Below, in pieces: positions 5,383-54,926 of a DNA stretch of 64,000 nucleotides. The notes under the pieces were generated by a model that worked only from the letters and a program-made list of their open reading frames with translations, was not told the origin of the DNA and did no database searches. The first letter of the stretch is position 1; every line of letters starts with the position of its first letter. The stretch comes from Thalassovita mediterranea. Its GTDB lineage: Bacteria; Pseudomonadota; Alphaproteobacteria; Rhodobacterales; Rhodobacteraceae. The stretch lies in contig NZ_CYSF01000019.1 in the NCBI RefSeq assembly GCF_001458435.1, positions 1 through 64,000 on the forward strand, given 5' to 3'. The position numbers and the translations under genes were made by a program.

Positions 5383-5577
5383 ATGAAATTCCATGTCCCG
5401 GACATGAGTTGCGGTCATTGCACGGCCGCTATCACCCGAGAAATTCTCGCGCTCGACCCGGCGGCGCAGGTTACCCCTGACCTCGCCGCCCGAACGGTCG
5501 CCGTGGAGACACGCCAGACCGGTAGCGCTGTCGCAAAGGCGATCGAGGCGGCTGGCTACAGCACAAACCCGGTCTGA
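5383..5577 (+). CDS. copZ: CopZ-like copper chaperone
   Basis: 64 aa, a single heavy-metal-associated domain with MSCGHC near residues 9-14 and the usual C-terminal AAGY segment. Such proteins carry Cu(I) in the cytoplasm and hand it to CopA and to CueR. The start is set by AGGAGGGTC eight bases upstream. It has its own CueR-type promoter and ends two bases before the convergent ScsC/DsbA gene. CxxC chaperones can carry other soft metals, but the neighbours point to copper. Confidence 0.9.
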   Translation: MKFHVPDMSCGHCTAAITREILALDPAAQVTPDLAARTVAVETRQTGSAVAKAIEAAGYSTNPV

Positions 5578-5579
5578 TC

Positions 5580-6308: not shown

Positions 6309-6309
6309 T

Positions 6310-9040: not shown

Positions 9041-9043
9041 GCC

Positions 9044-19865: not shown

Positions 19866-19867
19866 TC

Positions 19868-23762: not shown

Positions 23763-23891
23763 ATGGAACTCTTAGGTCTGGCATTGCCGATGTTCGTTGC
23801 CGATCCAGAGTTTCTGCGTGCAATGAAGAAAACTGGGGCCGTGCCGGCCCCTGAAGTTCTTTTCCCGGGCTGTTGGGGCCGGGAAAAGTGA
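23763..23891 (+). CDS. Possible 42-residue protein next to an IS element
   Basis: An ATG-to-TGA frame encodes MELLGLALPMFVADPEFLRA and 22 further residues. It ends two bases before the candidate left end of the IS110 element. There is no strong ribosome site and no known family, so this may be chance. The remainder of the 396-base gap after fic shows no other gene. Confidence 0.2.
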   Translation: MELLGLALPMFVADPEFLRAMKKTGAVPAPEVLFPGCWGREK

Positions 23892-23892
23892 A

Positions 23893-25178
23893 AGATGCCG
23901 TAATGGGGCTGTCGGCGAATCGAGCACGTTTCGCTTGTTTGTCAGCATGATGTGGAGTGCCGTTGCCCTTGATGCGCCTGAAGCGCGTCTACGAGGTCGT
24001 ATGTTTCCATGCGCCTCAATTCCTAAGAATAGAAGGGCAACGACATGAATGTATTTATCGGACTGGATGTATCCCTGGCAAGCACGGCGATTTGTGTGCT
24101 GGGGCCACAGGGGAGGATTGTTGACGAATTATAGGCGGAGAGCGAGCCTGAGGCATTGGTACGTGCAATAGCGTCATTGTCATATTCGATCGACGCGATC
24201 GGGCTCGAAGCCGGACCACTATCCCAATGGCTGAGCAAGGGCATCGAAGAGGCCGGATTTGACATGGTCTTGATGGAAACGCGGTTGGTGAAGGCCGCCT
24301 TGAAAGCCATGCCCATCAAGACCGACAGGCGCGATGCTCAGGGAATTGCTCGATTGTTGCAAATGGGTTGGTACAGGCCCGTGCACCGCAAATCTGTGTC
24401 CTCACAGGAAATTCGCGCTTTGCTGAGCGCGCGCAAGTCTATTCAGCAGGCGATCATCAACATCGAACTCTCGATGAGGGGAGTGCTCAGGAACTTCGGC
24501 CTGAAGCTTGGGCATGGCACCCGGGTAAGGTACGAGGCCCGGGTGAGGAAGCTGGTTGCCGACAATGACATCTTGTCCGCCTCGGCGTTGGCGCTTCTGC
24601 GGGCTCGGGGGCAGCTGAGGACAGAGCTGGCCAGCCTGGATGAAAAGGTCGTGGGGTTGGCGGAGCATGACGATGTTTGCCGTCTCATGATGACAAAGCC
24701 CGGTGTTGGCCCAATTGTTGCTTTGACCGTAAGATCCGCGATTGATGACCCGGCCCGCTTCGCGAAATCAAAGGATATCGGTCCTTGGGTCGGGCTGACG
24801 CCGAGGCGCACTCAATCCGGAGAGATGGACATTGTCGGGCAGATTACACGAGCGGGTGATCGAGGATTGCGATCGGCGTTGTACCAGGCTGCGACGATCT
24901 TGATGCACCGCGCAGCACCGAACTGGTTGCAGGCCTGGGCACTCAGAGTGGCGCACAGGCGTGGATCGAAACGGGCCCTGATTGCGCTCGCGCGCCGAAT
25001 TGGCGTCATTTTGCATCGCATGTGGATGGACGGTTCGCCGTTTCGCTTCACGCTGAACCCGGGCCCGACGGCCTAAGCGACACGCATCAAGGATTTTTCG
25101 TAACGGAGGCATGAACTGCATCTGACAACAGGTACGCAGAGGTCCCTTTTCGGGACGAGGTTCCTGGAGATGCCGTAA
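23893..25178 (+). mobile_element. IS110-family insertion element (ends tentative)
   Basis: The element is centred on a DEDD transposase gene. An 11-base direct repeat AGATGCCGTAA occurs at 23893-23903 and at 25168-25178, which may mark the ends, since IS110 elements lack terminal inverted repeats and insert by core-site recombination. The left non-coding end (23904-24044) is where IS110-group elements encode a bridge RNA. The element would be about 1.28 kb, a normal size. Confidence 0.55.
24045..25076 (+). pseudogene. IS110-family DEDD transposase with in-frame TAG
   Basis: The frame starts at the ATG at 24045 (MNVFIGLDVS, first catalytic Asp) and is in frame throughout, but codon 30 is TAG (24132-24134). 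The remainder has LEAG (Glu), TDRRDAQGIARLLQ (Asp) and the C-terminal transposase_20 domain (MTKPGVGPIVALTVRSAIDD, GLTPRRTQSG, GDRGLRSALYQAA). No other damage is seen. The element is probably inactive unless the stop is read through or a later start is used, which would lose the first Asp. Confidence 0.85.
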
Positions 25179-25550
25179 GGACACTGGCTATCAACACCTG
25201 TTGAATGCGCGTGAAAGATGGGCACCCAGGACCAGATTTGAACCAGGCAGAGAGTGGCAGCTTTTAGGCTGACTACGGACGGAAGAGCGAAGCCCGGGCA
25301 GGGGGAGCCCTCGGTCCTGAAGTGCCGTTGCAGTGAAAAAGAAAAAGTAAGCTTTTGATTTTGTGTCTTAAACCCGGTGAAGAAAGAAATGTTCGCCGGC
25401 ATTCTTGGCTTGCCGGAAACCCTTGACAGTGATCCGCCCCATTACGGAAGTGTCCTTCGGGTTTTGTGACTGACCGATGAGGGCCTTTGTGGCCCCTCAG
25501 ATGGGTCCGGGCCGAATTCCGGTCTGTCTTTCCTGATGAAGGGCATTCCC
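25179..25550. other. Gap between the IS element and the DUF island
   Basis: No gene seen. It contains a G-bulged hairpin TGAGGGCC-TTTGT-GGCCCCTCA (25478-25499) about 50 bases before the next gene, similar in position to the leader elements of genes further right. The A-rich run near 25330 is not followed by a recognisable promoter. Confidence 0.5.
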
Positions 25551-26061: not shown

Positions 26062-27000
26062 ATGGCCCGTTCCCGCACGCCCAAATTCGATGCCTCCGAG
26101 GTCATCACGAACGAAATCATCCGCATCATCGAGCGCGGCGTCCTGCCGTGGCGTAAGCCATGGACCGCAGGTGGCAGCTCTCGCCCCCTGCGCGTGGGCG
26201 GTGAACCCTACCAGGGAGTGAACAACTTCCTGCTGACCATGCGGACCGTGATGGCGGGCCACAGCTCACCTTTCTGGATGACGTTGCCGCAGGCCAATGC
26301 GTTGGACGCAAAGGTCCGCAAGGGAGAGAAATCCTCTGTCGTCGTCTATTACGGCCAAAGCCGGAAAGACGCGGGCGGCGAGGACGACCGCAGCGATGGC
26401 GATGATCACTCCGAGGAAGCCCGTATCTTCCGCTTCCAAAAGTCCTACCGCGTGTTTAATGCCTGCCAGATCGAGGGCCTGCCGGACAGCTTCTATCCGG
26501 ACACTGAGCCAACGACTGAGTATCCACCGTCTGAGCCCATCCCGCACATGCAGGCGTTTTTCGACGCCATAGACATCACAACCGTCTTCACGGGGACGGA
26601 GGCGTACTATTTGCCCCCCGTGGACAAGGTTTACATGCCGTCGATCGCGCGGTTCCAGGACCCGCGCAATTTCTACGGGGTCTGGGCCCATGAGCTGGCC
26701 CATGCCACGAAGGCCGCCCATCGACTGAACCGTGATTTCGGGTTCTCGAAGTTTGGCAACACGTCCTATGCGCGCGAGGAGATCGTCGCGGAATTGACCT
26801 CGGTGTTCCTTGGCCAGACGCTCGGCTTCACGGCGCATACGCTCGAGATGAACGCCGCCTACCTCTACAATTGGCTACGCGTTCTGCGCTCGGACACTGG
26901 CGCGATCTTCCGGCACGCCGCCGATGCGCAGCGCGCATGTAATTATCTGATCGCGCGGTCGGAAGCGGGCAGGGCAGGGGAGAGCGCCCAGGCCGCTTGA
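26062..27000 (+). CDS. ardC: ArdC-like antirestriction protein
   Basis: 312 aa from the ATG at 26062 (GAAAGGAGGCC upstream). The N-terminal domain (GVLPWRKPW, NNFLLTMRTV, GEKSSVVVYYG, VFNACQIEGLP) is the ssDNA-binding part of ArdC. The C-terminal zincin has HELAHATKAAHRL with a downstream Glu (EEIVAEL). ArdC proteins coat incoming single-stranded plasmid DNA and protect it from restriction during conjugation. Motifs are complete. It opens the island of co-directed genes at 26-38 kb. Confidence 0.9.
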   Translation: MARSRTPKFDASEVITNEIIRIIERGVLPWRKPWTAGGSSRPLRVGGEPYQGVNNFLLTMRTVMAGHSSPFWMTLPQANALDAKVRKGEKSSVVVYYGQSRKDAGGEDDRSDGDDHSEEARIFRFQKSYRVFNACQIEGLPDSFYPDTEPTTEYPPSEPIPHMQAFFDAIDITTVFTGTEAYYLPPVDKVYMPSIARFQDPRNFYGVWAHELAHATKAAHRLNRDFGFSKFGNTSYAREEIVAELTSVFLGQTLGFTAHTLEMNAAYLYNWLRVLRSDTGAIFRHAADAQRACNYLIARSEAGRAGESAQAA

Positions 27001-27020
27001 GGGGGCGTGCGTCGGCAAAG

Positions 27021-27034
27021 GGAAAGCAGGCTTT
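27021..27034 (+). promoter_or_regulatory. Island leader motif, copy 1
   Basis: GGAAAGCAGGCTTT, an imperfect hairpin (AAAGC/GCTTT), 36 bases before the DUF3768 gene. Related elements precede the ParB-like, strawberry notch and DUF736 genes. Confidence 0.45.
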
Positions 27035-27069
27035 GGGAAGGGTGTTTCAACTTCTCAAAGGAGAGCCCC

Positions 27070-27459
27070 ATGACCATCACCGCACAACCCCTGCCAGACC
27101 GTCCCGATCCGACCGTGATCGCGGTGCAGAACGACGCGTTTCGCAAGCTCGCGTGCCTTGGAGTGCCGCCCACGCAGCCCATCCAGGGCCGGATGCATGT
27201 CACCCGATCGCTCATGGAGGCCGGTGACGGCTTCATGGCCGAGGCGGTGAAGGCAACCGGTGAGTTTGCCACGTTCGAGCCTGAGAATGACCCCGAGGGA
27301 TGGCACGATTTTGGTGCGGTCGAGATCCGGGGCGAGACCGTGTTCTGGAAAATCGATCTCTATGAGGCAGATTCGGATTTCCGCTATGGGGCTGAGACCC
27401 CGGACAATCCTGCCACCACCATGCGCGTGCTGACCCTTGCCCGGCAGGGCATCACGTAG
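27070..27459 (+). CDS. DUF3768 protein
   Basis: 129 aa from the ATG after AAAGGAGAG. The sequence fits DUF3768, with IAVQNDAFRK near the start and WHDFGAVEIRGETVFWKIDLY plus ATTMRVLTLARQ near the end. It is cytoplasmic, acidic, and has no catalytic motif. The family occurs on rhizobial and roseobacterial plasmids beside ArdC and ParB-like genes. Function is unknown; the neighbourhood points to plasmid establishment. Confidence 0.8.
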   Translation: MTITAQPLPDRPDPTVIAVQNDAFRKLACLGVPPTQPIQGRMHVTRSLMEAGDGFMAEAVKATGEFATFEPENDPEGWHDFGAVEIRGETVFWKIDLYEADSDFRYGAETPDNPATTMRVLTLARQGIT

Positions 27460-27536
27460 TGATGTCCCGAGAGGGGATCATGCTGGCGCGCGACTGGTAG
27501 GGCAGGGGACTCCTCACCCTGACATCTGAGACGATG

Positions 27537-27601
27537 AAGGCCCGCTGACCACTCAAAGGGAAAGTGGGCCTTTTGTCGTGGTGATCCCTGAAGCCGGGGA
27601 T
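27537..27601 (+). promoter_or_regulatory. Island leader motif, copy 2
   Basis: AAGGCCC...GGGCCTTTTGTC hairpin containing GGAAAGTGGGCC, followed after nine bases by TGATCCC and a pairing GGGGAT. It lies 53 bases before the ParB-like gene. The T run makes a terminator an alternative reading. Confidence 0.5.
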
Positions 27602-27653
27602 TGGTCACGCGCAAGCGCGCGGGCCGCATCTCACCCACCTGGAAGGATATCCC

Positions 27654-29636
27654 ATGACCACAAGCTTTGCCCCTCTCACCGTCGCCATCGGCGATCTGGT
27701 CCCGCATCCAGCCAATGTGCGCAGCAACGCGCCGGAAACTTATGACCCCGAGAACATCGCCCATCTGAAGGCCAGCATCGCCGTTCTGGGCCTGCTCCAG
27801 CCGCTTCTGGTCCAAAAGCTTGACGGCAAATACGCCGTGCTGGCCGGTGGCCGACGCCATGCCGCGCTGAAGGAGCTGATCGCAGACAAGGCCGCGAAGG
27901 GGTTCACGGCGAAAACCAAGGTGGACTGCCGCCTTGTGCCGGAAGACTGCGACATCACCACGGCGCTGTCGCTCGCCGAGAACATTACCCAGGCACCGAT
28001 GAACGCAATCGACGAGTTCGAGGCTTTCGCCCGGATGATGGAGGTCGATGGCCAGATGCCTGAGACCATCGCAAAGACTTTCGGCACGACCGTTGCCGCC
28101 GTGAAAGGCCGGTTGCGCTACGGGCTGATCCACCCCGATATCCGCGCCGCGGCCCGGGCGAAGACGATCACGCTCGACACGATGAAGGCCTTTGCCGAGC
28201 ACCCGAGCCAGAAGGTTCAGCGCGAGGTCTACGAGGCGCTCACCAAGGAAGACAGCTATCTGCAGGCCTATACCGTCCGGCAAGCGCTCAAATCCCGCGG
28301 CGTGCAGGTCAGCGACGATATCGGAGCCTTCGTGCGCGCGGACTACGAGGCGCGTGGCGGTGCCGTCGCGGCTGACCTTCTGGAAGAGCATTCCGTGCTC
28401 GAGGATGCGGCGCTGGTCGAGACCATCCTGCTCGAGAAGCTCGGGGTCGCCGCCGAGGAGGCTCGCGCAAAACTGGGCTTTGCCTGGGCGGATGCGATGG
28501 TCCGCTACGATTACGCGACCATGGCGGACTATGGCCGGGTCTATCCCGGCCCGATCGAGCCGGATGAGGCTGCCCAGAAGCGCATCGATGAGATCACCGC
28601 CGAGCTTGAGCAACTGCAACTCGAGATGGAAGATGAGGGGCTCGACGACGGTGCCTACAACGCCCTTTACGACCGCGTCGACGCTCTGGAAGAGGAAGCC
28701 CGCGACCTGCAGGAGGCCTACAGCGCCGAGGACCTAGCGCGGTCTGGGGTGATAGCGTCGTGGCAGGGTGGGCAGATCACCATCCATGTTGGCCTCGTCC
28801 GCCCGGAAGACACCGTGAAAGAGGAGGGCGCGCGCGGCTCTTCGGCTAGCCCGACCGGGGAAGAGGCCCCGGACGCCGGCGAAATCACCTATCCAGCCTC
28901 ACTGGCCGAGGACCTCAAGACCGAGCGGGCCATGGCCCTTGGCGCCGCGATGGCGCTGCATCCGGAAGCCACGCTCGATCTGACGCTCTTCAAGCTGGTG
29001 AGCGACGTTCTGGCCAGCGGCATGAGTGTCACGCAGGCGATCAAGATCGATGCCCGCAAGGAATACCGCAACCACGCCAAGATGGACGAGATTGACGAGA
29101 CCTCCCTCGCGCAGGTGGCCGCGGCGCATGATGTGCTGGACCTCTCGTGGCTCGATGATACCCGCCCGCCCGCCGATCAGTTCGCGGCGTTTCGCGCGCT
29201 GGAGGCCGGCGAGAAGGCCAAGCTCGTGGCCTATGCCACGGCCAGCACCACGCAGTCCTGCTTCGCGCGGGACCGCCAGCGCGACAGCCTGATGCATGCG
29301 TTCGAGATCGAGATCATGCCCGATATCCGCGCGCATTGGACGCCGAACGCGGCGCTCTTCAATCGCTTCAAAAAGGCATGGCTCCTGAAGATCCTCGGCG
29401 AGGATCTGGGTCTGGCCCAGGAGGCGGTGACGCTGGCCTCGTCGAGCAAGAAGGAGATCGTGGCCTTCTGCGACAAGCTCTTTGCAGAGCCGTTCGCCAC
29501 ACTCACGGACGCGCAGCGCGCTGCCGTAGCCGCCTGGTGCCCGCCGATGATGCAGACCGCCGGTGTCGTCTGTGATGAGGCGGAGCCCGCCTCGGAATCT
29601 CCCGAGCCTGACAGCGAGGTCGCGCAAGCGGCCTGA
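27654..29636 (+). CDS. ParB-like plasmid protein
   Basis: 660 aa. An N-terminal ParB/Srx-type domain (LVPHPANVRS, LKASIAVLGLLQPLLVQ, AGGRRHAAL, LAENITQAPMNAIDEFEAF) and HTH (IAKTFGTTVAAVKGRLRYG) are followed by a long acidic coiled region (about 305-365) and a C-terminal helical domain of about 250 residues. It is far larger than partition ParB proteins, and a separate RepB exists, so it is probably not the partition protein. Similar proteins sit with ArdC on plasmids. A nuclease or CTPase role is possible. Confidence 0.82.
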   Translation: MTTSFAPLTVAIGDLVPHPANVRSNAPETYDPENIAHLKASIAVLGLLQPLLVQKLDGKYAVLAGGRRHAALKELIADKAAKGFTAKTKVDCRLVPEDCDITTALSLAENITQAPMNAIDEFEAFARMMEVDGQMPETIAKTFGTTVAAVKGRLRYGLIHPDIRAAARAKTITLDTMKAFAEHPSQKVQREVYEALTKEDSYLQAYTVRQALKSRGVQVSDDIGAFVRADYEARGGAVAADLLEEHSVLEDAALVETILLEKLGVAAEEARAKLGFAWADAMVRYDYATMADYGRVYPGPIEPDEAAQKRIDEITAELEQLQLEMEDEGLDDGAYNALYDRVDALEEEARDLQEAYSAEDLARSGVIASWQGGQITIHVGLVRPEDTVKEEGARGSSASPTGEEAPDAGEITYPASLAEDLKTERAMALGAAMALHPEATLDLTLFKLVSDVLASGMSVTQAIKIDARKEYRNHAKMDEIDETSLAQVAAAHDVLDLSWLDDTRPPADQFAAFRALEAGEKAKLVAYATASTTQSCFARDRQRDSLMHAFEIEIMPDIRAHWTPNAALFNRFKKAWLLKILGEDLGLAQEAVTLASSSKKEIVAFCDKLFAEPFATLTDAQRAAVAAWCPPMMQTAGVVCDEAEPASESPEPDSEVAQAA

Positions 29637-29645
29637 GTCCTCACG

Positions 29646-29677
29646 CGACCCGCGCGAGGCATTTCCCGCGCGGGTCG
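29646..29677 (+). terminator. Strong hairpin between the ParB-like and DUF3085-like genes
   Basis: Perfect 11-base stem CGACCCGCGCG / CGCGCGGGTCG with a ten-base loop, 10 bases after the ParB-like stop. There is no T run, so it may be an RNA-processing or stability element instead of an intrinsic terminator. Confidence 0.45.
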
Positions 29678-29708
29678 ACCCTCCCACACCCAACCGAAAG
29701 ACATCCCC

Positions 29709-30302
29709 ATGGCTATTCTCAAGTTCTCTGCGTCCGCTGTTGCGGCACAGATCGCCCATGCGCGCGCCTGCAAGACCTTCCTGCCCAACTGGAACGGGCC
29801 CGTGGACAGGCCCGCCCTGATCCTGATCGTCGGCAATGGTGTGCATCTGCGCTCAAACGGCATCGATGGCACGACCACCCGTATCGTCACCACCGAACAG
29901 GCAGATCCCTCCTTCGCCTTCGCCGACGGCATGAACCCGTTTCGGGATACCGACTGGATGGCGCAGCGCCGCATGGCGTTTCGCGATCTGACCGGCCAGT
30001 TCTACACCGACATCCTGGATGACGTGCAGGTGCTCATCGACCGGGGGCGGGGGGCGATCCGGCTCGCCACCGATGGCCACAGCATCCGCGTCTTCGTACG
30101 CCGGGCCTCGGATTATCTCATCGGCGGGACCTACGAGGTGCCCTCGGGCCTCGGCGGCACCTTCCGGGTCATCCTCAAGGATGCCTGCGATACCTTCGCG
30201 ATCGTGCAGAACTGCGGCAATTGCGAGGATTTCGACGCCATGCAGCCCTACCGCGTGCCGCTCGATGCGCTGATGGAAATCGATGACCGGAGGGTTGCCT
30301 GA
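29709..30302 (+). CDS. DUF3085-like protein
   Basis: 197 aa. The pattern near the start (AAQIAHARACKTF, then RPALILIVGNGVHLRSNGI) resembles DUF3085. No membrane segment or catalytic motif is visible; one CGNC pair is near residue 173. The stop overlaps the next start (TGATG), so the two genes are translationally coupled. Function is unknown. The family call is from memory of its pattern and is moderate. Confidence 0.7.
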   Translation: MAILKFSASAVAAQIAHARACKTFLPNWNGPVDRPALILIVGNGVHLRSNGIDGTTTRIVTTEQADPSFAFADGMNPFRDTDWMAQRRMAFRDLTGQFYTDILDDVQVLIDRGRGAIRLATDGHSIRVFVRRASDYLIGGTYEVPSGLGGTFRVILKDACDTFAIVQNCGNCEDFDAMQPYRVPLDALMEIDDRRVA

Positions 30303-30958
30303 TGGGTTGGCTCTTCTACACCGACGGCCGCGTCCAGACCTACGCGGATGAGAAAGCGGAGATTGCTCGGCTGTGCACCTTCGAGGGCGAAAGGCGCAAG
30401 ACGGAACTGGTCAAAGCCTGCAAGGTGGGTTCGACTTGGTACGCGGCGGCAAAGGTCACAAATATCGACGGCACCCCTGTCGAAGACACGACCTATGTCA
30501 CCGATGCGGATGGCTCCATCACTTTCGCCGCCGTATTCCTTACCCGATATGATGACGGCTGCTGGGGCTACAAGGACATGGAGGAAAGCGCGGGACCGGT
30601 CGAATCCCGCGCGCCACTGAGCCTATTGGCCCTGCTCTCCGACCTGAAAGACCCGGACAGCTACGCCCAGGACTGGCGTCAGCGCTGCCGGAATTGGGCG
30701 TCGATTCCGGACTACAAGGAAGGCGACAAGATCAGGCTCGCAGCACCTGTGACACTCACCGATGGCAGCACCTGCCAGATCGTCACCGCGACCCACTACA
30801 GGCGGGGTCGGCAAAAGCGCCGCTGTTACCGCATCGAGGAAACCGGTGGGCTCGTACGCCTGTCGAAGGCCTCGCTTGCGGGCTCGGAGCTGCTCAGCTC
30901 CGCAAAGGGCGCGGCCAGTCCTGTGCTGGCGGAATTCCTAGCGGGGCGGGACGCTTAG
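30302..30958 (+). CDS. DUF6927-like protein
   Basis: 218 aa starting MGWLFYTDG, a start typical of the DUF6927-like plasmid proteins. The middle contains AAVFLTRYDDGCWGYKDMEES and the end WRQRCRNWASI, a mainly beta plus helical layout with no catalytic motif I recognise. It overlaps the upstream gene by one base and the convergent HEPN gene by four bases at its 3' end. Function is unknown; it belongs to the island's DUF set. Confidence 0.72.
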   Translation: MGWLFYTDGRVQTYADEKAEIARLCTFEGERRKTELVKACKVGSTWYAAAKVTNIDGTPVEDTTYVTDADGSITFAAVFLTRYDDGCWGYKDMEESAGPVESRAPLSLLALLSDLKDPDSYAQDWRQRCRNWASIPDYKEGDKIRLAAPVTLTDGSTCQIVTATHYRRGRQKRRCYRIEETGGLVRLSKASLAGSELLSSAKGAASPVLAEFLAGRDA

Positions 30959-31620
30959 GGGCGCACTGCGAGTAGTGCGCGCACCGTCTCGATTTCCAGC
31001 ACCCAGTTGCTGGTCGTTTCGTTGCGCCATCTTATGCAGCGGATGATCCGATCAAAATCATCCTGAAGGGTGCGCGGAAAAACAGGCTCATGGTGTGCGA
31101 TTCTGTTGCGGAGCCTCCTCACGGCTTCAATGTCAGACCTTAATTCAGATCGGCGCTGGCTGGCAGCGACACCACGAGGCGCGTCCGGAAACACTGCGTA
31201 GAAATGATCGTCCCACAGTCTGCCTTGGTGCCTGTTTGTCAGCATCTTCTCCCAAAACACGAACTTCAGTTCGGCGACGACCTTTCCGGCAGTGGGTTGC
31301 TGTGCTGCGCAACCTTCGAGGTCTCGTTTGGGGCTGTATGCCGGACCGCGCGGGTTCGGTAACGAACGGATGAAGCCTTGTGTCCAAGGCCATGTTCCTC
31401 CATGGACAGCTTCGATCGCTTCCACGATCGCGTTTCGCAGCGCAACTTCCAAAACATGGAGTGGAACCATGAACGCGGCTGATACTTGAAGATTCCAGTG
31501 GTATAGGTGGAGAGCTCGCGTCCTATCATTGCCGGTTTCGCGCAGATAGGTCGCAAACCTAGGTGCGGATAGGACGTTCGGAAGGTGGTGTTCTTCATCA
31601 GCCGTGAACGGTGGATACAT
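30955..31620 (-). CDS. Abi-like HEPN-type protein
   Basis: 221 aa. The region VPLHVLEVALRNAIVEAI and the motif RLRNRIAHHEPVF fit Abi-like (AbiD/F-type) proteins. The R-x4-H of RNRIAH matches the HEPN RNase signature. Such proteins act in abortive infection or as toxins by cutting RNA. It is the only reverse gene in the island, has no obvious antitoxin, and its 3' end overlaps the DUF6927-like gene. It may be a defence gene inserted into the island. Confidence 0.8.
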   Translation of the reverse strand: MYPPFTADEEHHLPNVLSAPRFATYLRETGNDRTRALHLYHWNLQVSAAFMVPLHVLEVALRNAIVEAIEAVHGGTWPWTQGFIRSLPNPRGPAYSPKRDLEGCAAQQPTAGKVVAELKFVFWEKMLTNRHQGRLWDDHFYAVFPDAPRGVAASQRRSELRSDIEAVRRLRNRIAHHEPVFPRTLQDDFDRIIRCIRWRNETTSNWVLEIETVRALLAVRP

Positions 31621-31710
31621 TGACAGTAAAGACTTTCGGTGCCATATAGAGTGTGAGCTTTGAGACTGCGGGCACTATGCCTCCCCTCATTGCACAAAGA
31701 AAGCAAAAGC

Positions 31711-31734
31711 CCGTCGCATTGCGGCGGGTTTTTC
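31711..31734 (+). terminator. Intrinsic terminator upstream of the helicase fusion gene
   Basis: CCCGTCGC-ATT-GCGGCGGG stem (seven pairs plus one G-T) followed by TTTTT. It lies in the 255-base gap behind the reverse HEPN gene and would stop forward transcription before the strawberry notch gene, insulating its leader. Confidence 0.65.
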
Positions 31735-31820
31735 AGTTTTCTAATCCAACTCCGAAAAACCGTTTGATTGGCCGGTCGGCGATTGGATGCCTCTTGGTCT
31801 GAGCTCATCACCCCGAAAAG

Positions 31821-31867
31821 CGAAAGTGGGCTTTTTGTCCTTTGGAACTCAGACCCTGATCCAAAGG
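31821..31867 (+). promoter_or_regulatory. Island leader motif, copy 3
   Basis: CGAAAGTGGGCTTTTTGT followed by a second hairpin CCTTTGG-N15-CCAAAGG (31839-31867), ending eight bases before the strawberry notch ATG. The second hairpin would hide the ribosome site AAAGGAAA. Confidence 0.5.
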
Positions 31868-31875
31868 AAACCCCC

Positions 31876-34800
31876 ATGTCCAAGCCCAAACCGGCAAATC
31901 CGGCTCTCTCAATCTCCGACACTGACCTCACCTCTGCCCTCGCGCAGATCGGCACGGAGGTCGACCACCAGCCCCTGCGCAGCTCAGCGCTGGCGCGCAT
32001 CATGCGAGAGACGTTTCATGGCAGCGATGCCGGCGGTGCCTGGGACTGGCGCATGGCATATGACCTGATGCAGGCCGCGGCTGTCCAGGTGCTGCTGCGC
32101 GGGGACGCAGCGGTAGGTGACATCGCCGCTGCAAAGCTGCTCGCCTCGCGGCTTCTGACGGAAACGCGCCGGTCAGAGCAGCAGATCCGGCTGCAGCAGT
32201 TTTCCACGCCGCTGGCATTCGCGACCATGGCGGTGCGGGCCGCAGCGATCCGCAAGGGCGAGACCGTCCTGGAGCCGTCGGCGGGCACCGGTGCCCTGGC
32301 TGCTTTCGCCGCCCGGGCCGGTGCCACGCTTTTGCTCAACGAGATCGACCCCTTTCGCCAAAGCCTATTGCGCGCGGTTTTCGGCGGCGAGGTCACAGGC
32401 CATGACGGCGAGCATATCGATGATCTGCTGCAGACGCCGGTTCTACCCGACGTCGTGGTGATGAATCCGCCCTTCGCCTCCTCGGTCGATCGCTCCCGAG
32501 ACAAGCACATTGCCGCCAAACATCTCATCGCGGCTGCAAAGCGTCTCGCGCCCGGTGGGCGGCTGGTGGCGATCATGCCGCCGGGGTTCACGCCCGAACG
32601 CGATGCCGCGCAATGGTCCCGCGCCTGCGGTCTCCTCAGGCCGCGCTTGGCGCTGACGATGCCGGGGCAGGTCTACCGCAAGCTTGGCACCTCTGTCGAA
32701 ACCCAGCTCATGATCTTCGACAAGGTGCAGGAGGATGGGGAGATGATCCGCGCCATTGTGTGCGATCTGGATGAGGCCCTTCCTTTTGTCGACTCCGTGG
32801 CCGCGACCCGGACCGAGATGCGCCACGTACAACAGGCGGCACCGGTTACTACTGCGCGACCGACCGTTGCACCATCTGCCCCGCGCAAGACCGCCGCTGC
32901 GCCTGTTGCCGCCTCCAAACCCCGGGCCAATGCCGTCCGTCCGCTCAGCTTCACAAGCTTTGAGACCCCTCGCGACAACACGCCCATCTCGGACATCTAT
33001 GCGCGCTATCGCCCACAGCGGATCGAGATCGCGGGTGCGCAGGAACATCCCACACCGCTGGTCGAGAGCATCGCCATGGCCTCGGTTGCCCCGCCCATGC
33101 CCTCAAATACGGGTCGTGATGACTTGCGCCTGCCCGCACGGTTGGTCGAGGAGGGAGATCTCTCCGAGGCGCAGCTCGAGACCATCATCATGGCGCATGA
33201 TGCCCATGGGCGCGACCTGCCCGGTCGGTTTACCATCGATGACGACCAGACCAAGCTGACGCGCGCCGATGATGACCCGGATGCACGTGCCTATCGCCTT
33301 GGCTATTTCCTCGGCGACGGCACCGGTTGCGGCAAGGGGCGCGAATGCGCGGGGCTCATCCTTGTCAACTGGCTGGCCGGGCGCAGGAAGGCGATCTGGG
33401 TCTCCAAATCCGCCACGCTCATCGAGGACGCCATCCGCGACTGGACCGATCTCGGCGGCTCGCCCGCCGACATCCAGCCGGTCTCCAAATGGAAACCGGA
33501 CCAGTCCATCCCGATGGGCGACGGCATCCTATTTGTCACCTACGCCACGCTGCGGTCCGCGGGCAAATGCGGCACCACGCGATTGAGCCAGATCCTCGCC
33601 TGGATGGGCGAAGACTTTGAAGGCGTGCTGGCCTTTGATGAGGCCCATGCCATGCAGAACGCGGCAGGGTCTGAGCAGGGCAGGGGGGTCAAACCCTCCC
33701 AGCAGGGCCTTGCTGGCCTGCGGCTGCAACTGGCAACACCCCGCGCTCGCGTCTTCTATATCTCGGCCACGGGCGCCACGAGCGTGCACAACCTGGCCTA
33801 TGCCGCGCGTCTCGGTCTCTGGGGACAAGGCCCCGAATACCCCTTCCCGAGCCGCGAGGGTTTCGTTTCAGCGATGGAAGCCGGCGGCGTGGCTGCCATG
33901 GAGGTGGTCGCGCGTGATCTCAAGACGCTCGGGCTTTACACAGCGCGTGCCCTCAGCTTCGACGGTGTTGAATACGATGTGCTGGAACACGCGCTGACCC
34001 CGGCCCAGATCGAGGTCTATGACGCCTACGCTGGAGCGTTTCGCACGATCCACCACAATCTCGAAGCCGCTTTGACAGCCATCGGCGCCAACGACGCCTC
34101 GGGAGAGACCAATGCCTCGGCCGCACGCGCCTCGGCCAAGTCCCGCTTCGAGAGCACGAAGCAGCGCTTCTTCAACCATCTCCTGATGGGCATGAAAGCC
34201 CCGACCATCATCCGTGCCATCGAGGACGACCTGGCAGCGGGCAACGCCTGCGTCATCCAAGTGGTCTCGACAGGCGAGAGCCTGCTGAAACGCCGGCTTG
34301 AGACGATGGATTGCGACGATGAGCTCGTCGAGGGGGCCTTGACGCCGCGCGACTATGTTCTGGGCTACCTCGAACAGGCCTTCCCGATCCATGCGCAAAA
34401 GCTCGTGGAAATCGACGGCAACATGGTGGCCGAGCCGCTCCGGGATGAGACCGGTGCGCTGGTGGTCTCGCGGGAGGCGCTCGCCCTGCGCGATGCGGCC
34501 ATGATGGAGTTGATGACGCTGGCCCCGATCCCCTCGGCGCTCGATCAGATCCTCTGGGCCTTTGGCGACGAGGCTGTCGCCGAGGTCACGGGTCGGTCCA
34601 TCCGGCCCCTCAAGGCCGCGGACGGCCATCTCTTCATCGAAAAGCGCAGCGCCAGCAGTAATTCATCCGAGACCCAAGCCTTCATGGACGGCGAAAAGGA
34701 TATCCTGATCTTTTCCGATGCGGGCGGGACGGGCCGATCCTATCATGCGGCGCAAACGGCGAAGAACCAGAAACGGCGGCGGCACTACCTGTTGGAGCCC

Positions 34801-36138
34801 GGCTGGCGCGCCGATGCGGCCATCCAGGGGTTGGGCCGTACGCATCGCTCGGCCCAGGTCAGCGCGCCTTTCTTCCGGGTCTGCACCTCGGATGTGCATG
34901 GCGAAAAGCGTTTCACCTCGACGATCGCCAAGCGCCTCGACCAGCTGGGGGCCTTGACCAAGGGTCAGCGCGAGACCGGCTCGCAAGGCATGTTCCGCGA
35001 GGAGGATAATCTCGAAAGCCCGATCGCGCGGGCCGCACTACGTGGGTATTTCGCCGATCTTGCCGCCGGGCGCGCTGAGGCGATGAGCTACGAGAGCTTC
35101 ACCGACTGGACGGCCCTGCGGCTGATCGACAAGGACGGGGTGCTCCTTGAGGAGCTTCCCCCGATCCAGCGGTTTCTGAACCGGGTTCTGGCCCTGCCCA
35201 TCCACATGCAGAACGCACTCTTTGCCGAGTTCATGCGCCGGATTGCCGATCAGACGGAACGGGCGCGCGCGGCGGGCACGCTCGATCTCGGCGTGGAAAC
35301 CCTGCGCGGCGAAAAGATCGAACAGGTATCCACAGAGGATCTCTGGACCTGCCCGAAATCCGGCGCCGTGACGCGGATCATTGGACTTGAAGTCACCGAC
35401 CCGGTCCATGTGCTTTCGGCGGATGACGCCCTGTCGCGCAATTTCGATAAGCTGCCGATGGTCAACCGCGCGTCGGGTCGCGCGGCGCTCATCTCGGCGC
35501 GGCCAATGCAGATGTATGACGAGGACACTGTCACGCTGATGCGCAAGGCGGTGCGGCCAAACGGGTCGAGCTATCTCGAAGAGGCACGGTTTGAGTCCTC
35601 GGCTTGGGAAGAGATCGACAGGCCCGAGTTCGCACGTCTTTGGGATGCAGAGGCTGCGTCCTTGCCAAAAACCACCACGACCAAGCTCTACCTGCTGACC
35701 GGGCTGCTGCTGCCGATCTGGAAGGATATTCCGACCACCAATGAGCGGATCTACCGTGTCACGCCAGACGGGGCGACGGCCATGATCGGGCGCACGCTCA
35801 GTGAGGAAGGCGCAGCCGCGTTGCGTGCCCGCTTCCTCGTCTCCAACCCGCAAACACCGCAAGAGATGCTGACTGCCGCATTGGGCACCACCGCGCCGGT
35901 CGATCTTGGCCGGGGGATGACCCTGACCCGTCGCCGGGTCGCAGGCGAGATGCGCCTCGAGCTGGGAGGTGTCGATCGGGGTATGATTGATGGATTGAAA
36001 GCGCTTGGCTGCTTCACGGAGATCATCGCTTTCCAGCTACGGGTGTTCCTGCCGCACGGGGACGGGATCGACACGGGAAGAATTCTGGCCCGGATCGTGG
36101 GGCAGCGAGCCGCCAGAGCAGCAGAACAAGCCGCCTGA
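31876..36138 (+). CDS. Methyltransferase-strawberry notch helicase fusion
   Basis: 1420 aa from the ATG at 31876. Residues about 95-290 form a SAM-dependent methyltransferase fold with LEPSAGTGALA and the amino-methyltransferase motif NPPF. After a Pro/Ala linker (330-400) comes a strawberry notch (SNO) helicase: Walker A-like GDGTGCGKGRE, Walker B DEAH (FDEAHAMQNA), SATGA, and a helicase C region with DAGGTGRSYHA and QGLGRTHRS. Prokaryotic SNO proteins are found on plasmids and phages with unclear roles. It may methylate or remodel incoming plasmid DNA. Confidence 0.88.
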   Translation: MSKPKPANPALSISDTDLTSALAQIGTEVDHQPLRSSALARIMRETFHGSDAGGAWDWRMAYDLMQAAAVQVLLRGDAAVGDIAAAKLLASRLLTETRRSEQQIRLQQFSTPLAFATMAVRAAAIRKGETVLEPSAGTGALAAFAARAGATLLLNEIDPFRQSLLRAVFGGEVTGHDGEHIDDLLQTPVLPDVVVMNPPFASSVDRSRDKHIAAKHLIAAAKRLAPGGRLVAIMPPGFTPERDAAQWSRACGLLRPRLALTMPGQVYRKLGTSVETQLMIFDKVQEDGEMIRAIVCDLDEALPFVDSVAATRTEMRHVQQAAPVTTARPTVAPSAPRKTAAAPVAASKPRANAVRPLSFTSFETPRDNTPISDIYARYRPQRIEIAGAQEHPTPLVESIAMASVAPPMPSNTGRDDLRLPARLVEEGDLSEAQLETIIMAHDAHGRDLPGRFTIDDDQTKLTRADDDPDARAYRLGYFLGDGTGCGKGRECAGLILVNWLAGRRKAIWVSKSATLIEDAIRDWTDLGGSPADIQPVSKWKPDQSIPMGDGILFVTYATLRSAGKCGTTRLSQILAWMGEDFEGVLAFDEAHAMQNAAGSEQGRGVKPSQQGLAGLRLQLATPRARVFYISATGATSVHNLAYAARLGLWGQGPEYPFPSREGFVSAMEAGGVAAMEVVARDLKTLGLYTARALSFDGVEYDVLEHALTPAQIEVYDAYAGAFRTIHHNLEAALTAIGANDASGETNASAARASAKSRFESTKQRFFNHLLMGMKAPTIIRAIEDDLAAGNACVIQVVSTGESLLKRRLETMDCDDELVEGALTPRDYVLGYLEQAFPIHAQKLVEIDGNMVAEPLRDETGALVVSREALALRDAAMMELMTLAPIPSALDQILWAFGDEAVAEVTGRSIRPLKAADGHLFIEKRSASSNSSETQAFMDGEKDILIFSDAGGTGRSYHAAQTAKNQKRRRHYLLEPGWRADAAIQGLGRTHRSAQVSAPFFRVCTSDVHGEKRFTSTIAKRLDQLGALTKGQRETGSQGMFREEDNLESPIARAALRGYFADLAAGRAEAMSYESFTDWTALRLIDKDGVLLEELPPIQRFLNRVLALPIHMQNALFAEFMRRIADQTERARAAGTLDLGVETLRGEKIEQVSTEDLWTCPKSGAVTRIIGLEVTDPVHVLSADDALSRNFDKLPMVNRASGRAALISARPMQMYDEDTVTLMRKAVRPNGSSYLEEARFESSAWEEIDRPEFARLWDAEAASLPKTTTTKLYLLTGLLLPIWKDIPTTNERIYRVTPDGATAMIGRTLSEEGAAALRARFLVSNPQTPQEMLTAALGTTAPVDLGRGMTLTRRRVAGEMRLELGGVDRGMIDGLKALGCFTEIIAFQLRVFLPHGDGIDTGRILARIVGQRAARAAEQAA

Positions 36139-36260
36139 AAAGTCAAAGCGAGCTTCCGGTCGGGCGGCGTGGATCGGGATTTGGCCGATCTGCGCTTTCC
36201 GGGCGCGCGCTGATCAATGCCAGGCCCGGCCCCCCCAAATTCAGATAAGAGGACAGACCC

Positions 36261-36647
36261 ATGACCAATCCCCAGATCGACTATGCCGCAATGGCGGCTC
36301 AGTGGCGTGCAGAGCGCGAAACCACCTTGAAGGCATCCAGAGTGGAGCTGCTCGCGCAGCTACGTGCGCTTGGCATCAGCGAGGTCGCTGTCGAATATGA
36401 AGGCTATGGCGACTCCGGCAATGTCGAGGATGTGACGGTGCAGCCTGCAGAGGTCAACCTGCCGGAGCCGCTTGTCACAGAAGTTGGCGATTTCGCCTGG
36501 TCGCTCGCCTATCACCATCACCCGGGGTTCGAGAACAACGAGGTTGGCTACGGCACGCTGACCTGGGACTTGCGCAACGACAGTATCACCTTGGATCACG
36601 CGGACCGCTATGTCGAATGCTCGCATAGCTATGACGAGGGGCTGTGA
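36261..36647 (+). CDS. DUF6878 protein
   Basis: 128 aa. The segments VAVEYEGYGDSGNVEDV, GFENNEVGYGTLTWDL and ITLDHADRYVE fit the DUF6878 pattern. It is acidic and soluble. It follows the SNO fusion by 122 bases and its stop is one base before the next ATG. These small proteins co-occur on alphaproteobacterial plasmids with DUF6915. Function is unknown. Confidence 0.78.
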   Translation: MTNPQIDYAAMAAQWRAERETTLKASRVELLAQLRALGISEVAVEYEGYGDSGNVEDVTVQPAEVNLPEPLVTEVGDFAWSLAYHHHPGFENNEVGYGTLTWDLRNDSITLDHADRYVECSHSYDEGL

Positions 36648-36648
36648 G

Positions 36649-37110
36649 ATGGCCCATCCGCTTCATCATGCTGAAAGCTCTGCCCGGAAATTCGGCGGAG
36701 TGCCGTCTGACTATCAGTCCATACATGACTGGTTCGATGCCTCGAAAGAGCACCTCGCGCTCTTCACGCACAGAGCCTTGCGCCACCATGCCCAAGGCCT
36801 GTTCGAGGCCGAACGTGTCTTCGGCCTGACCCTGACCAATAGCGCTGGTCGGGACATTCCGGTGCGCTGGATCGGTGAGCAGCATGTGCGTGAAGACTGC
36901 CAGGGCCGCATCCCGAGCATGGCGGACTGGCTGCGACGGATCCAGCCCGAGCCATGGATGGCCAATGGCCATATCGACCGGCATGTCGGCGATGAGCCCT
37001 GCGGCGACCCAAGGGCCGCTTGGGCCTCCGAGGTTGCCGCCGGACGAACGGTTCTTGGCCTGAAAGATTGGATGGCGGCGCACGCGACGCAAGCCACGCA
37101 AAGCGCCTGA
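36649..37110 (+). CDS. DUF6915 protein
   Basis: 153 aa from the ATG at 36649. It is rich in His and Trp: MAHPLHHAESSARKFGG, IHDWFDASK, HRALRHHAQG, WIGEQHVREDC, IPSMADWL. The HRALRHHAQG and GEQHVREDC segments could form a metal site, but this is a guess. The pattern fits DUF6915. It is coupled to DUF6878 and has no membrane segment. No function is known. Confidence 0.78.
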   Translation: MAHPLHHAESSARKFGGVPSDYQSIHDWFDASKEHLALFTHRALRHHAQGLFEAERVFGLTLTNSAGRDIPVRWIGEQHVREDCQGRIPSMADWLRRIQPEPWMANGHIDRHVGDEPCGDPRAAWASEVAAGRTVLGLKDWMAAHATQATQSA

Positions 37111-37145
37111 CAGCTCTCGGCCGTTTGCCAAACAAATGCAGCATG

Positions 37146-37171
37146 GAAGCCCAGTTGGACGACTGGGCTTC
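37146..37171 (+). terminator. Hairpin after the DUF6915 gene
   Basis: Perfect ten-base stem GAAGCCCAGT / ACTGGGCTTC with a six-base loop, 36 bases after the DUF6915 stop and 40 bases before the next start. Only a short T-rich tail follows, so termination may be partial. Confidence 0.55.
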
Positions 37172-37210
37172 TTGCGTCGTTTCCCCACCATTCTTCGTAA
37201 GGAGGACCCC

Positions 37211-37513
37211 ATGACACTCGATGATATCAAGGCCGCTGTCGATGTCGGTCAGACCGTGCATTGGGTCAATATCGGCTACGTTGTCCACAAGGACCGGCTC
37301 AGCCAATACCTGATCACCTATGTGCCGAACGGAAGCTGCATCGGCCTGACCGACCGGGGCGGGCACCGGTTGAACGGAAAAGAAACGGAGTTCTTCGTCG
37401 CGCAATCGAAGGACGCCGCACAAAATCCGGGCAGCCAATCAAGACCAGACGGGCAGGGGAGGGGCGTAGCACCCGGAGGCGCGGGGGCATTCCCACTCGG
37501 ACGGCAGCGCTGA
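37211..37513 (+). CDS. Small hypothetical protein of the island
   Basis: 100 aa from the ATG after AAGGAGGACC. The first 65 residues look structured (VHWVNIGYVVHKDRLSQYLITYVPNGSCIGLTD), a short beta fold. The last 35 are Gly/Arg/Pro-rich and probably disordered. No known motif or membrane segment. It sits in the row of DUF genes and shares their strong ribosome site. I do not recognise the family. Confidence 0.62.
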   Translation: MTLDDIKAAVDVGQTVHWVNIGYVVHKDRLSQYLITYVPNGSCIGLTDRGGHRLNGKETEFFVAQSKDAAQNPGSQSRPDGQGRGVAPGGAGAFPLGRQR

Positions 37514-37532
37514 CCCGTGGGCGGGGCTGAAA

Positions 37533-37572
37533 GGAAAGCAGGCTTTCTGATTTGTGATCCCTCAAGGGGTCG
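37533..37572 (+). promoter_or_regulatory. Island leader motif, copy 4
   Basis: GGAAAGCAGGCTTTC with a GAAAGC/GCTTTC hairpin, then TGATCCCTCAAGGGG, about 66 bases before the DUF736 ATG. Both parts recur in copy 2 (27537-27601) in the same order. Confidence 0.5.
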
Positions 37573-37637: not shown

Positions 37638-38366
37638 ATGTTCGCAGGAACCCTTACCCGCAATGTCGAGACCGCAGTCGCTCAGTACACCGGCATGATC
37701 CACTCGACGCGCTTTGACATCGCCATCCAGTTGGAGGCGCGAGCCAAGATGTCTGAACGCAGCCCGGATTTTGACGTGACGGCAGTCAACAAATCAGGCC
37801 GCAAGGTGCGCATCGGCACGGCCTGGAACGAGACCGGCAATACCAGCGGCAACCCCTACATTTCGATGCAGATCGATGTCGGCTTGGGTCCGTTCCGGGT
37901 CAACGCGGTGCAGACGAAAGAGGCGCGCGCGGCCCAGAGCGGCGAATTCGAGATCATCCCGCTGGTCTCGAACGGCCTGATGAAATCCGGCTCGATCTCG
38001 GGCGAGCTCACCGCTATGGACGCCGACAACGCCTTCACCGGCTACATCGCCAACATGATGTTCGATCTGGAGTTCATGCTGATCGAGAACAGCTATAAAT
38101 CCGAGGAGACCCACCCCGATTACCGGATCGAGGTCAGCTCGCCCCGGGGCACACCGATCCGCGTCGGCTCGGCCTGGATGGCGAAAAGCAGCCGCACGGG
38201 CAATGACTACCTGTCGCTGCTGATCAACACGCCCGATGGCGACCTGCGCGTGAACGCCGTGCAGAACGAAGAACAGCGCGGTGGGCAGACCTTCTCGATC
38301 ATCCCGTTCATCGACAGCGGTGAGCAGCCGCAGGACGCAGGCGCGGGGCTGTCGTTGGTCGCGTGA
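37638..38366 (+). CDS. Tandem DUF736 protein
   Basis: 242 aa. DUF736-like units occur twice: about residues 40-115 (DFDVTAVNKSGRKVRIGTAW, PYISMQIDVG, FRVNAVQ, FEIIPL) and about 155-235 (DYRIEVSSPRGTPIRVGSAW, DYLSLLINTP, LRVNAVQ, FSIIPF). DUF736 proteins are usually single-unit and about 100 aa. They are found on plasmids and may bind nucleic acid, but their role is unknown. A terminator follows at 38397, closing the island. Confidence 0.85.
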   Translation: MFAGTLTRNVETAVAQYTGMIHSTRFDIAIQLEARAKMSERSPDFDVTAVNKSGRKVRIGTAWNETGNTSGNPYISMQIDVGLGPFRVNAVQTKEARAAQSGEFEIIPLVSNGLMKSGSISGELTAMDADNAFTGYIANMMFDLEFMLIENSYKSEETHPDYRIEVSSPRGTPIRVGSAWMAKSSRTGNDYLSLLINTPDGDLRVNAVQNEEQRGGQTFSIIPFIDSGEQPQDAGAGLSLVA

Positions 38367-54918: not shown

Positions 54919-54926
54919 GCGCCGCC

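What the first reader, a model, noticed from the sequence alone, without database searches (positions are those of the whole stretch)
27021..37572. A leader motif recurs before genes of the 25-38 kb island
GGAAAG(C/T)(A/G)GGC(C/T)TT appears at 27021-27034, near 27557-27573, 31821-31838 and 37533-37547, each 36 to about 100 bases before a gene of the ArdC/DUF set. Two copies are followed by TGATCCCT(G/C)AAG and a pairing GGGG; a related hairpin plus TGATCCC occurs near 51204 and 51496. The motif is able to form hairpins. It could be a common RNA regulator, or a promoter formed on single-stranded incoming DNA, which would suit antirestriction genes. Simple intrinsic terminators are the plain alternative for the copies with T runs.
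Basis: partly seen in the sequence, partly recalled or inferred. Interest (0 to 1): 0.72.

Follow-up and report, generated by a model that had tools for sequence, protein, structure and literature searches.

The report
Landing sites for RNA-guided transposons
A short DNA word repeated in front of several genes of a marine bacterial plasmid is, in related plasmids, the spot where jumping genes of an RNA-guided family insert, and their predicted guide sequences change in step with the exact spot they occupy.

Summary
The repeated 14-mer is real. It occurs exactly three times in the 3.43 Mb genome, all in this plasmid island on one strand; a fourth copy has one mismatch. In 80 related loci plus the window the four leaders are conserved where they could be aligned (59-77 of 81).

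It is not one shared hairpin. Copy 2 is a strong terminator-type hairpin (43 of 43 distinct sequences), copy 3 only in some alleles (16 of 49), copies 1 and 4 almost never (1 of 47, 1 of 50).

In relatives these places are insertion points of IS110/IS1111-family elements, at GAAAG|YRGGCYTT. Of 12 element copies found by exact ends in the 81 sequences, 9 sit in copies 1-3 or a sister gap; 3, the window's own among them (23895-25450), sit at a related site with a different right half. The non-coding end holds two short segments that match the occupied site and change with it. A second, IS110-type element sits in copy 4 with matching segments.

No positive support for a ssDNA promoter; some for RNA leaders. 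Why plasmids keep the motif in copies 1 and 4 is unresolved.

The parts
23881..23894 (+). left half of a related site ('copy 0'), GGGAAAAGTGAAAG, now split by the IS
   Evidence: left flank abutting the IS end
23895..25450 (+). IS1111-type element of the IS110 family: ATG-CCGTAATGGGGC ... GCCCCATTACGG-AAG (outer bases may be shared with the target, so ends are uncertain by 2-3 bases)
   Evidence: subterminal inverted repeats and flanks compared over many loci
24045..25076 (+). transposase gene, broken by an in-frame TAG at 24132-24134
   Evidence: reading of the sequence; Pfam DEDD_Tnp_IS110 and Transposase_20 on the part from 24156 on
25122..25280 (+). predicted seekRNA / bridge RNA region in the downstream non-coding end
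   Evidence: fold z -1.9, 7 of 200 shuffles as good; 2 of 44 pairs with changes on both sides in 11 copies
25177..25185 (+). guide 1, AAGGACACT, complementary to AG|TGTCCTT of the insertion site
25211..25217 (+). guide 2, GTGAAAG, identical to the left flank of the insertion site
25338..25354 (+). motif-like stretch inside the IS non-coding end
   Evidence: present in all 9 element copies aligned
25451..25470 (+). right half of site 'copy 0', TGTCCTTCGGGTTTTG; differs from the motif's right half
27017..27034 (+). motif copy 1 (ardC to DUF3768 gap); IS1111-type insertion here in L063 (right flank only) and L108
27537..27574 (+). motif copy 2 as 3' arm of a terminator-type hairpin AAGGCCCGCT..AGTGGGCCTTTT; IS1111-type insertion here in L060 (left flank only), L087, L150, L152-L154, L156, L157, L172
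27583..27602 (+). leader hairpin 2, GATCCCTG..CGGGGATT
   Evidence: 100% of cells paired in 49 sequences; a pairing equivalent read by eye in L171 and L172
27603..27625 (+). leader hairpin 3
   Evidence: 98.6% of cells paired in 49 sequences
31817..31834 (+). motif copy 3 (before the strawberry-notch helicase gene); IS1111-type insertion here in L044, L063, and L065 and L086 (right flank only)
31838..31868 (+). inverted repeat TCCTTTGGA..TCCAAAGGA covering the Shine-Dalgarno of the helicase gene
   Evidence: changed on both sides in L172 (by eye)
36138..36157 (+). sister site 3b, here AAAAGTCAAAG|CGAGCTTCC (helicase to DUF6878 gap); IS1111-type insertion here in L107, and by flanking sequence in L162 and L168
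37530..37547 (+). motif copy 4 (before DUF736); IS110-type insertion here in L046 and L094
37556..37571 (+). leader hairpin GATCCC-TCAA-GGGGTC
   Evidence: one-sided, pair-preserving changes in L095, L103, L105

Best explanation
The recurring 14-mer is a target footprint of RNA-guided insertion sequences that live on this plasmid family. The IS1111-type element makes an RNA from its downstream non-coding end. That RNA carries two guides: about 9 nt complementary to AG plus the right half of the site, and about 7 nt identical to the left half. With the DEDD transposase it inserts after GAAAG. Element lineages carry different guides fitted to different sister sites: YGGGCCTT (copy 2), CGGGCTTT (copies 1, 3, 3b), and TGTCCTT or TGTTCTT at a related site ('copy 0') that holds the window's own, probably dead, copy. 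A second, IS110-type element has its own guides for copy 4. Copy 2 and some alleles of copy 3 are also terminator-type hairpins. At YGGGC sites the IS right end (AGGCYCGC) pairs with the retained target arm, so insertion re-forms a terminator-like hairpin in front of the gene. SHOWN from sequence: insertion points, match of guides to sites, its change between lineages, conserved leader hairpins. INFERRED: that the RNA is made and guides insertion (known for the family), that the rebuilt hairpins terminate transcription, and why plasmids keep the motif in copies 1 and 4.
For: Exact element ends searched in 80 loci plus window: 12 copies, all in the same orientation relative to the island genes. 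Nine are at motif sites (copy 1: L063, L108; copy 2: L060, L087; copy 3: L044, L063, L065, L086; 3b: L107). Three are at copy 0 (WIN, L075, L076). Seven of the 12 show both flanks. Guides match their own site: AAGGACACT with AG|TGTCCTT, AAGAACACT with AG|TGTTCTT, AAAGCCCGCT with AG|CGGGCTTT, AGGCCCGC with AG|YGGGCCT (G-T pairs allowed); left guide GGGAAAG goes with GGGARAG sites. For 12 distinct element/site rows guide 1 scores 100 of 108 against a mean of 89.2 when sites are shuffled (P 4e-5), guide 2 75 of 84 (P 3e-4); the summed score was reached in 0 of 100,000 shuffles. In the window copy's predicted fold 5 of 9 guide-1 bases and 4 of 7 guide-2 bases face each other in one 7x7 internal loop; three further bases of each pair with one another. 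Two pairs in the stem above have changes on both sides. Guide order is top-strand complement first, as reported for IS1111; the IS110-type element has GAAAGCCTGC, then GGAAAG, the order reported for IS110. Transposase family confirmed. Of 19 distinct right junctions, 12 fold to -14.3 kcal/mol or lower with the IS arm paired to the target arm.
Against: No experiment; no RNA data. The window's own copy does not sit in the 14-mer: its site shares only the left half, and its transposase has an early stop. The 12 rows are related by descent (about three guide lineages), so the shuffle P values overstate independence. The left guide matches only 5 of 7 in two rows (L044, L160). The copies from genome G219 with a visible right flank (L134/L158, L146, L160, L161) sit at CTGGCTTT with one guide mismatch, some at contig ends. 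In L046 the IS110-type guide has one mismatch. Copies L119, L122, L151, L155 and L169 lie at other or unidentified places: L119 and L122 share only AAAAG on the left, and L169 has AAGGCTTT on the right. Three of 16 loci with the left end (L117, L118, L121) carry a different element with other flanks. Only exact ends were searched, so degenerate copies are missed. Site-specific insertion does not explain why the motif is conserved without an IS, as in L171 (four relaxed motifs, no IS end), nor the further conserved leader sequence.
Confidence: 0.8

Rival explanations
1. Plain intrinsic terminators: each copy ends the transcript of the preceding gene, and nothing more.
For: Copy 2 is a strong hairpin with a T run (43 of 43 distinct sequences with z below -2; z -4.9 in the window). 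Copy 3 alleles a and c are strong (15 and 2 distinct sequences, median z -6.6 and -3.0). Distant relatives L173-L175 have what look by eye like terminator hairpins in gene gaps, without the motif (not folded).
Against: Copies 1 and 4 and allele b of copy 3 (the window's own) fold no better than shuffles, and copies 1 and 4 have no long T run, yet the sequence stays conserved. It does not explain the guide matches of two transposon types.
Confidence: 0.45
2. A common RNA leader (attenuator or translational control): terminator or hairpin, then a second hairpin, then a hidden ribosome-binding site, controlling the downstream island genes.
For: Leader 2 hairpins: 98.4% of cells paired, 24 cells changed on both sides, covariation score 0.114, each reached by 0 of 500 shuffles. 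Hairpins in leaders 2, 3 and 4 have pairing equivalents in L171 and L172 (by eye). The leader-2 model finds leader 3 in L172 (E 1e-6), L097 (1e-4), L070 (3e-4) and the window (0.002), and leader 4 only at E 0.05 in L097.
Against: No common structure for all four. In one search two other measures are reached by shuffles (pairs changed on both sides 62 of 500, further pair types 309 of 500), 0 of 30 pairs change on both sides. The model also hits opposite strands and unrelated places at similar E (for example L070 417-514, E 0.005). No Rfam match in the window.
Confidence: 0.35
3. Single-strand promoter (Frpo-like) that lets leading-region genes be read from incoming T-strand DNA.
For: The motif-led genes point towards relaxase and T4CP, and ArdC and a ParB-like gene are present; leading-region anti-defence genes with Frpo promoters are described by Samuel et al. 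2024 (PMC11541004, passages read).
Against: Two sigma-70-like sites in 23.5-39.5 kb (3.4 expected), neither in a leader (a consensus scan that alphaproteobacterial promoters may escape). Copies 1 and 4 form no stable hairpin as RNA (not folded as DNA). The motif lies only 36-92 bases from the start codon. The oriT was not located.
Confidence: 0.06
4. A DNA site for an island-encoded protein (for example the ParB-like protein), kept by that protein and exploited by the IS elements.
For: The sequence is conserved without structure in copies 1 and 4, and all four leaders of L171 (helicase 81% identical, no IS end found) keep it.
Against: No direct evidence; not a simple palindrome.
Confidence: 0.2

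Closest known systems
IS1111-family elements with seekRNA (ISEc11, ISPa11, ISKpn4; Siddiquee et al. 2024, PMC11187229: abstract, sections 10, 13, 14 and passages read)
   Same: DEDD transposase, subterminal inverted repeats, long downstream non-coding end, two guides with the top-strand complement first, sister elements re-aimed by changed guides
   Different: Target is a repeated leader/terminator motif of a plasmid island; several guide versions serve several sister sites of one island; at YGGGC sites the IS end re-forms a hairpin with the target
IS621 and other IS110 elements with bridge RNA (Durrant et al. 2024, PMC11208160, passages read)
   Same: guides covary with the target and lie in an internal loop; REP elements are looked at as targets there
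   Different: The main element here is IS1111-type with the RNA in the right end; the donor-binding loop was not analysed here; only about half of each guide is unpaired in my predicted fold
REP sequences as IS targets (Tobes and Pareja 2006, PMC1525189, abstract read)
   Same: repeated intergenic palindromes used as landing sites by specific insertion sequences
   Different: Here only some copies are palindromic; sites are on plasmids and precede island genes
Frpo/ssi single-strand promoters (Samuel et al. 2024, PMC11541004, passages read)
   Same: repeated upstream elements in a leading-type region with anti-restriction genes
   Different: No promoter elements found in the leaders; no common fold

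Membership tests
IS110 family, IS1111 group (window element) | DEDD transposase with Transposase_20 domain | tested here: met
   Pfam PF01548 and PF02371 in the intact L004 copy and in the window fragment
IS110 family, IS1111 group (window element) | subterminal inverted repeats and longer non-coding end downstream of tnp | tested here: met
   CCGTAATGGGGC / GCCCCATTACGG; 359 bases between tnp stop and right repeat, about 150 between left end and tnp
IS110 family, IS1111 group (window element) | site-specific insertion in one orientation without target duplication | tested here: met
   same junction and orientation at five island sites; the only uncertain bases are the shared AG/AAG
IS110 family, IS1111 group (window element) | guide RNA with top-strand complement before bottom-strand match, fitting the target | tested here: met
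   as sequence; the RNA itself not shown
IS110 family, IS1111 group (window element) | transposase-bound seekRNA and guided transposition | not testable with these tools
   needs RNA and transposition assays
Second element (L046, L094) as IS110 group | non-coding end upstream of tnp with guides in reverse order | tested here: met
   GAAAGCCTGC then GGAAAG in the 168-base upstream end, target AGAAAGCYTGC..TGCTTTCC, one mismatch in L046; its transposase was not run against Pfam
Intrinsic terminator | stable G+C-rich hairpin followed by a T run | tested here: inconclusive
   met for copy 2 and copy 3 alleles a and c, not met for copies 1, 4 and copy 3 allele b
Frpo-like ssDNA promoter | hairpin that places -35 and -10 in a duplex | tested here: not met
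   no sigma-70-like pair in any leader; consensus scan only
Rfam RNA family | match above gathering score | tested here: not met
   no match in the window, none at E up to 1 for 25077-25450

The most novel reading that the evidence does not exclude
The leading-type region of these conjugative plasmids carries an array of sister landing sites in gene gaps that RNA-guided transposons share out by fine re-aiming of their guides, down to one base (GGGCCTT against GGGCTTT, TGTCCTT against TGTTCTT). The transposon end has adapted to the target so that insertion rebuilds the terminator it splits. The element thus lives in the region without disturbing the anti-restriction genes behind it.
Probability: 0.45. 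Interest if true: 0.75.

Novelty: new variant of a known kind. Interest (0 to 1): 0.62.

Why it matters
It gives a natural series of IS1111 guide sequences that differ by one or a few bases and sit in sites that differ by the same bases. This is a ready test set for how strictly these programmable recombinases read their targets. It also suggests how such elements can persist in a dense, conserved plasmid region: they land in gene gaps and may rebuild a terminator there. It corrects a likely misreading, since a repeated 'leader motif' can be the footprint of RNA-guided transposons rather than one shared regulator.

Tried and rejected
Single-strand promoter: no promoter pairs in the leaders. 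One shared hairpin: rejected for copies 1 and 4. Known riboswitch or sRNA family: no Rfam match. TGATCCC at 51 kb as part of the family: the word is common in the window; one search shows the stretch is conserved on plasmids, but I did not study its leaders. Motif as a genome-wide element: 27 of the 30 non-own loci fetched had no island protein nearby. All cargo in the motif gaps due to this IS: no. Of the six large inserts between ArdC and DUF3768 only L108 is this IS. Before the helicase gene the right edge of cargo exchange lies at the motif, but the left edge lies in the 3' end of the preceding gene, not at an IS-like flank, so I do not claim the IS drives it. The third IS110 element (L093, inside the DUF6915 gene) is unrelated to the motif.

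Prior description: five literature searches (listings and abstract starts seen) showed no report of IS110/IS1111 elements aimed at this motif; only open-licence papers are held. Work on attC and Tn21-end targets was seen only as mentions and references inside other papers.


Full report
SETTING. The window is part of one contig of a 3.43 Mb genome. It is a repABC-type replicon: parA/repA-like 18684-19865, repB 19853-20839, repC 21046-22407, with a MobA/VirD2-type relaxase 52579-54918 and T4CP 54915-56927. The island genes on +, so pointing towards the relaxase, are ArdC 26062-27000, DUF3768 27070-27459, a 660-aa ParB-like protein 27654-29636, 29709-30302, DUF6927 30302-30958, a strawberry-notch-type helicase 31876-36138, DUF6878, DUF6915, 37211-37513 and DUF736 37638-38366; an Abi_2-like gene (weak match) lies on - at 30955-31620. 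Relatives lie on Rhodobacterales plasmids (241 records).

THE MOTIF. Exact at three places and with one mismatch at a fourth, nowhere else in the genome, and only on + even in relaxed form. The 80 best loci homologous around the helicase gene were fetched (298 relatives were found, 80 kept). Upstream regions could be aligned for 60 (copy 1), 59 (copy 2), 77 (copy 3) and 73 (copy 4) of 81 sequences and are strongly conserved. Copy 3 has three kinds of left half (33, 44 and 4 of 81) joined to one constant right part that begins at the motif.

STRUCTURE. Leader 2 has a terminator-type stem with one pair switching G-C, A-U and G-U, then two more hairpins (98.4% of cells paired and 24 cells changed on both sides, 0 of 500 shuffles each; but pairs changed on both sides 62 of 500 and further pair types 309 of 500; the sequences are related, so none is a probability). 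Leader 4 has GATCCC-N4-GGGGTC, with one-sided, pair-preserving changes only. Leader 3 has TCCTTTGGA..TCCAAAGGA over the ribosome-binding site; in plasmid L172 (helicase 80% identical) this becomes a different but still pairing repeat (by eye). Around the motif itself, hairpins with z below -2 are found in 43 of 43 distinct copy-2 sequences, 16 of 49 for copy 3, 1 of 47 for copy 1 and 1 of 50 for copy 4; 1 and 3 sequences without the pattern were set aside for copies 2 and 1 (40 shuffles each). The motif is therefore conserved as sequence, not as one structure. A covariance model of leader 2 finds leader 3 weakly and leader 4 barely, among other hits of similar weakness.

INSERTIONS. Large extra DNA appears in some gaps: ardC-DUF3768 6 of 56 (plus about 250 extra bases in 34), DUF3768-parB 2 of 60, before the helicase 60 of 66, helicase-DUF6878 1 of 61, 37211-DUF736 2 of 73; and 0 of 48, 59, 61 and 58 in four gaps without the motif; one more (1 of 59) is an unrelated IS110 element inside a gene. 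Not all of this is the IS: of the six in the first gap only L108 is. Reading the junctions showed an element with ends ATG-CCGTAATGGGGC and GCCCCATTACGG-AAG. It sits between GAAAG (or GAGAG) and YGGGCYTT in copies 1, 2, 3 and in the helicase-DUF6878 gap. It also sits at a fifth site upstream of ArdC (copy 0), where the window's own copy lies and where the right half is TGTYCTT instead. A recount with exact ends in the 81 sequences gives 12 copies: 9 at motif sites, 3 at copy 0; 7 show both flanks. Plasmid records, many of them near-identical strains, add seven in copy 2 (L150, L152-L154, L156, L157, L172). L162 and L168 are, by flanking sequence, in the helicase-DUF6878 gap, while L119, L122, L151, L155 and L169 are at other or unidentified places.

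GUIDES. Following the description of seekRNA in Siddiquee et al. 2024 (PMC11187229; abstract, sections 10, 13, 14 and passages read), I looked in the downstream non-coding end for a segment complementary to the right half and then one equal to the left half. Both are there, and they vary between copies as the sites vary. The window and L004 have AAGGACACT for AG|TGTCCTT. L076 has AAGAACACT for AG|TGTTCTT, a matched one-base change. L107, L108 and L063 have AAAGCCCGCT for AG|CGGGCTTT. Copy-2 residents have AGGCCCGC for AG|YGGGCCT and a left guide GGGAAAG for GGGARAG. A shuffle of 12 distinct rows gives P 4e-5 and 3e-4 for the two guides; descent inflates this. Mismatches exist: two rows match the left guide at only 5 of 7, and the G219 copies with a visible right flank sit at CTGGCTTT with one guide mismatch. 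In the window copy's predicted fold the sides of one 7x7 internal loop are GUAAGGA and AAAGAUG. They hold 5 of 9 bases of guide 1 and 4 of 7 of guide 2; three more bases of each guide pair with one another. Two pairs of the stem above have changes on both sides. A second element, of IS110 type, sits in copy 4 of L046 and L094. Its upstream end holds GAAAGCCTGC and then GGAAAG, matching that site (one mismatch in L046) in the order reported for IS110.

REBUILT TERMINATOR. For elements at YGGGC sites the last bases of the IS, AGGCYCGCCCCATTACGGAAG, pair with the retained target arm: 12 of 19 distinct right junctions fold to -14.3 kcal/mol or lower in this way. Against shuffles this is clear for L087 and L108 (0 of 200 each) and not for L044 (38 of 200). 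Elements at TGTCCTT and TGTTCTT sites, the window's among them, lack this arm. This could be adaptation or shared descent. That the hairpin stops transcription is inferred.

WHAT REMAINS OPEN. In L171 (helicase 81% identical) all four leaders keep the motif and no IS end is found, so the IS does not explain its upkeep; in L173-L175 (helicase 44-51% identical) neither is found. Terminator function covers copy 2 and part of copy 3. For copies 1 and 4 a protein-binding or RNA-level role is possible and untested. The ssDNA-promoter idea lacks support though the gene orientation would allow it.

Noticed in passing
window 24132-24134: The resident IS1111-type transposase has an in-frame TAG near its start, so this copy is probably inactive; an intact 343-aa relative is annotated in Octadecabacter sp. 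SW4 (L004).
   Followed up: partly
window 25335-25365: The IS non-coding end itself carries a motif-like stretch (AAAAGAAAAAGTAAGCTTTTGATTTTGTG) that resembles leader 4 (CTTTCTGATTTGTG); it is present in all 9 element copies aligned.
   Followed up: partly
window 30955-31876 and the same gap in relatives: The gap before the helicase gene is a cargo bay: weakly Abi_2-like gene in the window; YhaV, PrlF, RelB-type, RelBE, Phd, Fic, cation-efflux or metabolic genes in the relatives looked at; 60 of 66 loci carry cargo.
   Followed up: partly
window 27000-27070: The window lacks about 250 bases that 34 of 56 relatives have between ArdC and DUF3768; in L004 this holds a gene annotated DUF6330.
   Followed up: no
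window 29647-29677 and 37145-37170: Two further strong hairpins in gene gaps without the motif, upstream of 29709 and 37211 (z -4.4 and -3.7).
   Followed up: partly
L173, L174, L175 gene gaps: Distantly related plasmids (helicase 44-51% identical) show by eye terminator-like hairpins in gene gaps but not the motif.
   Followed up: partly
L117, L118, L121: Other insertion sequences share the exact left end ATGCCGTAATGGGGC but have different flanks ending in AG.
   Followed up: no
window 2328-9403: Copper-type resistance cluster: P-type ATPase, multicopper oxidase, CopC, CopD.
   Followed up: no
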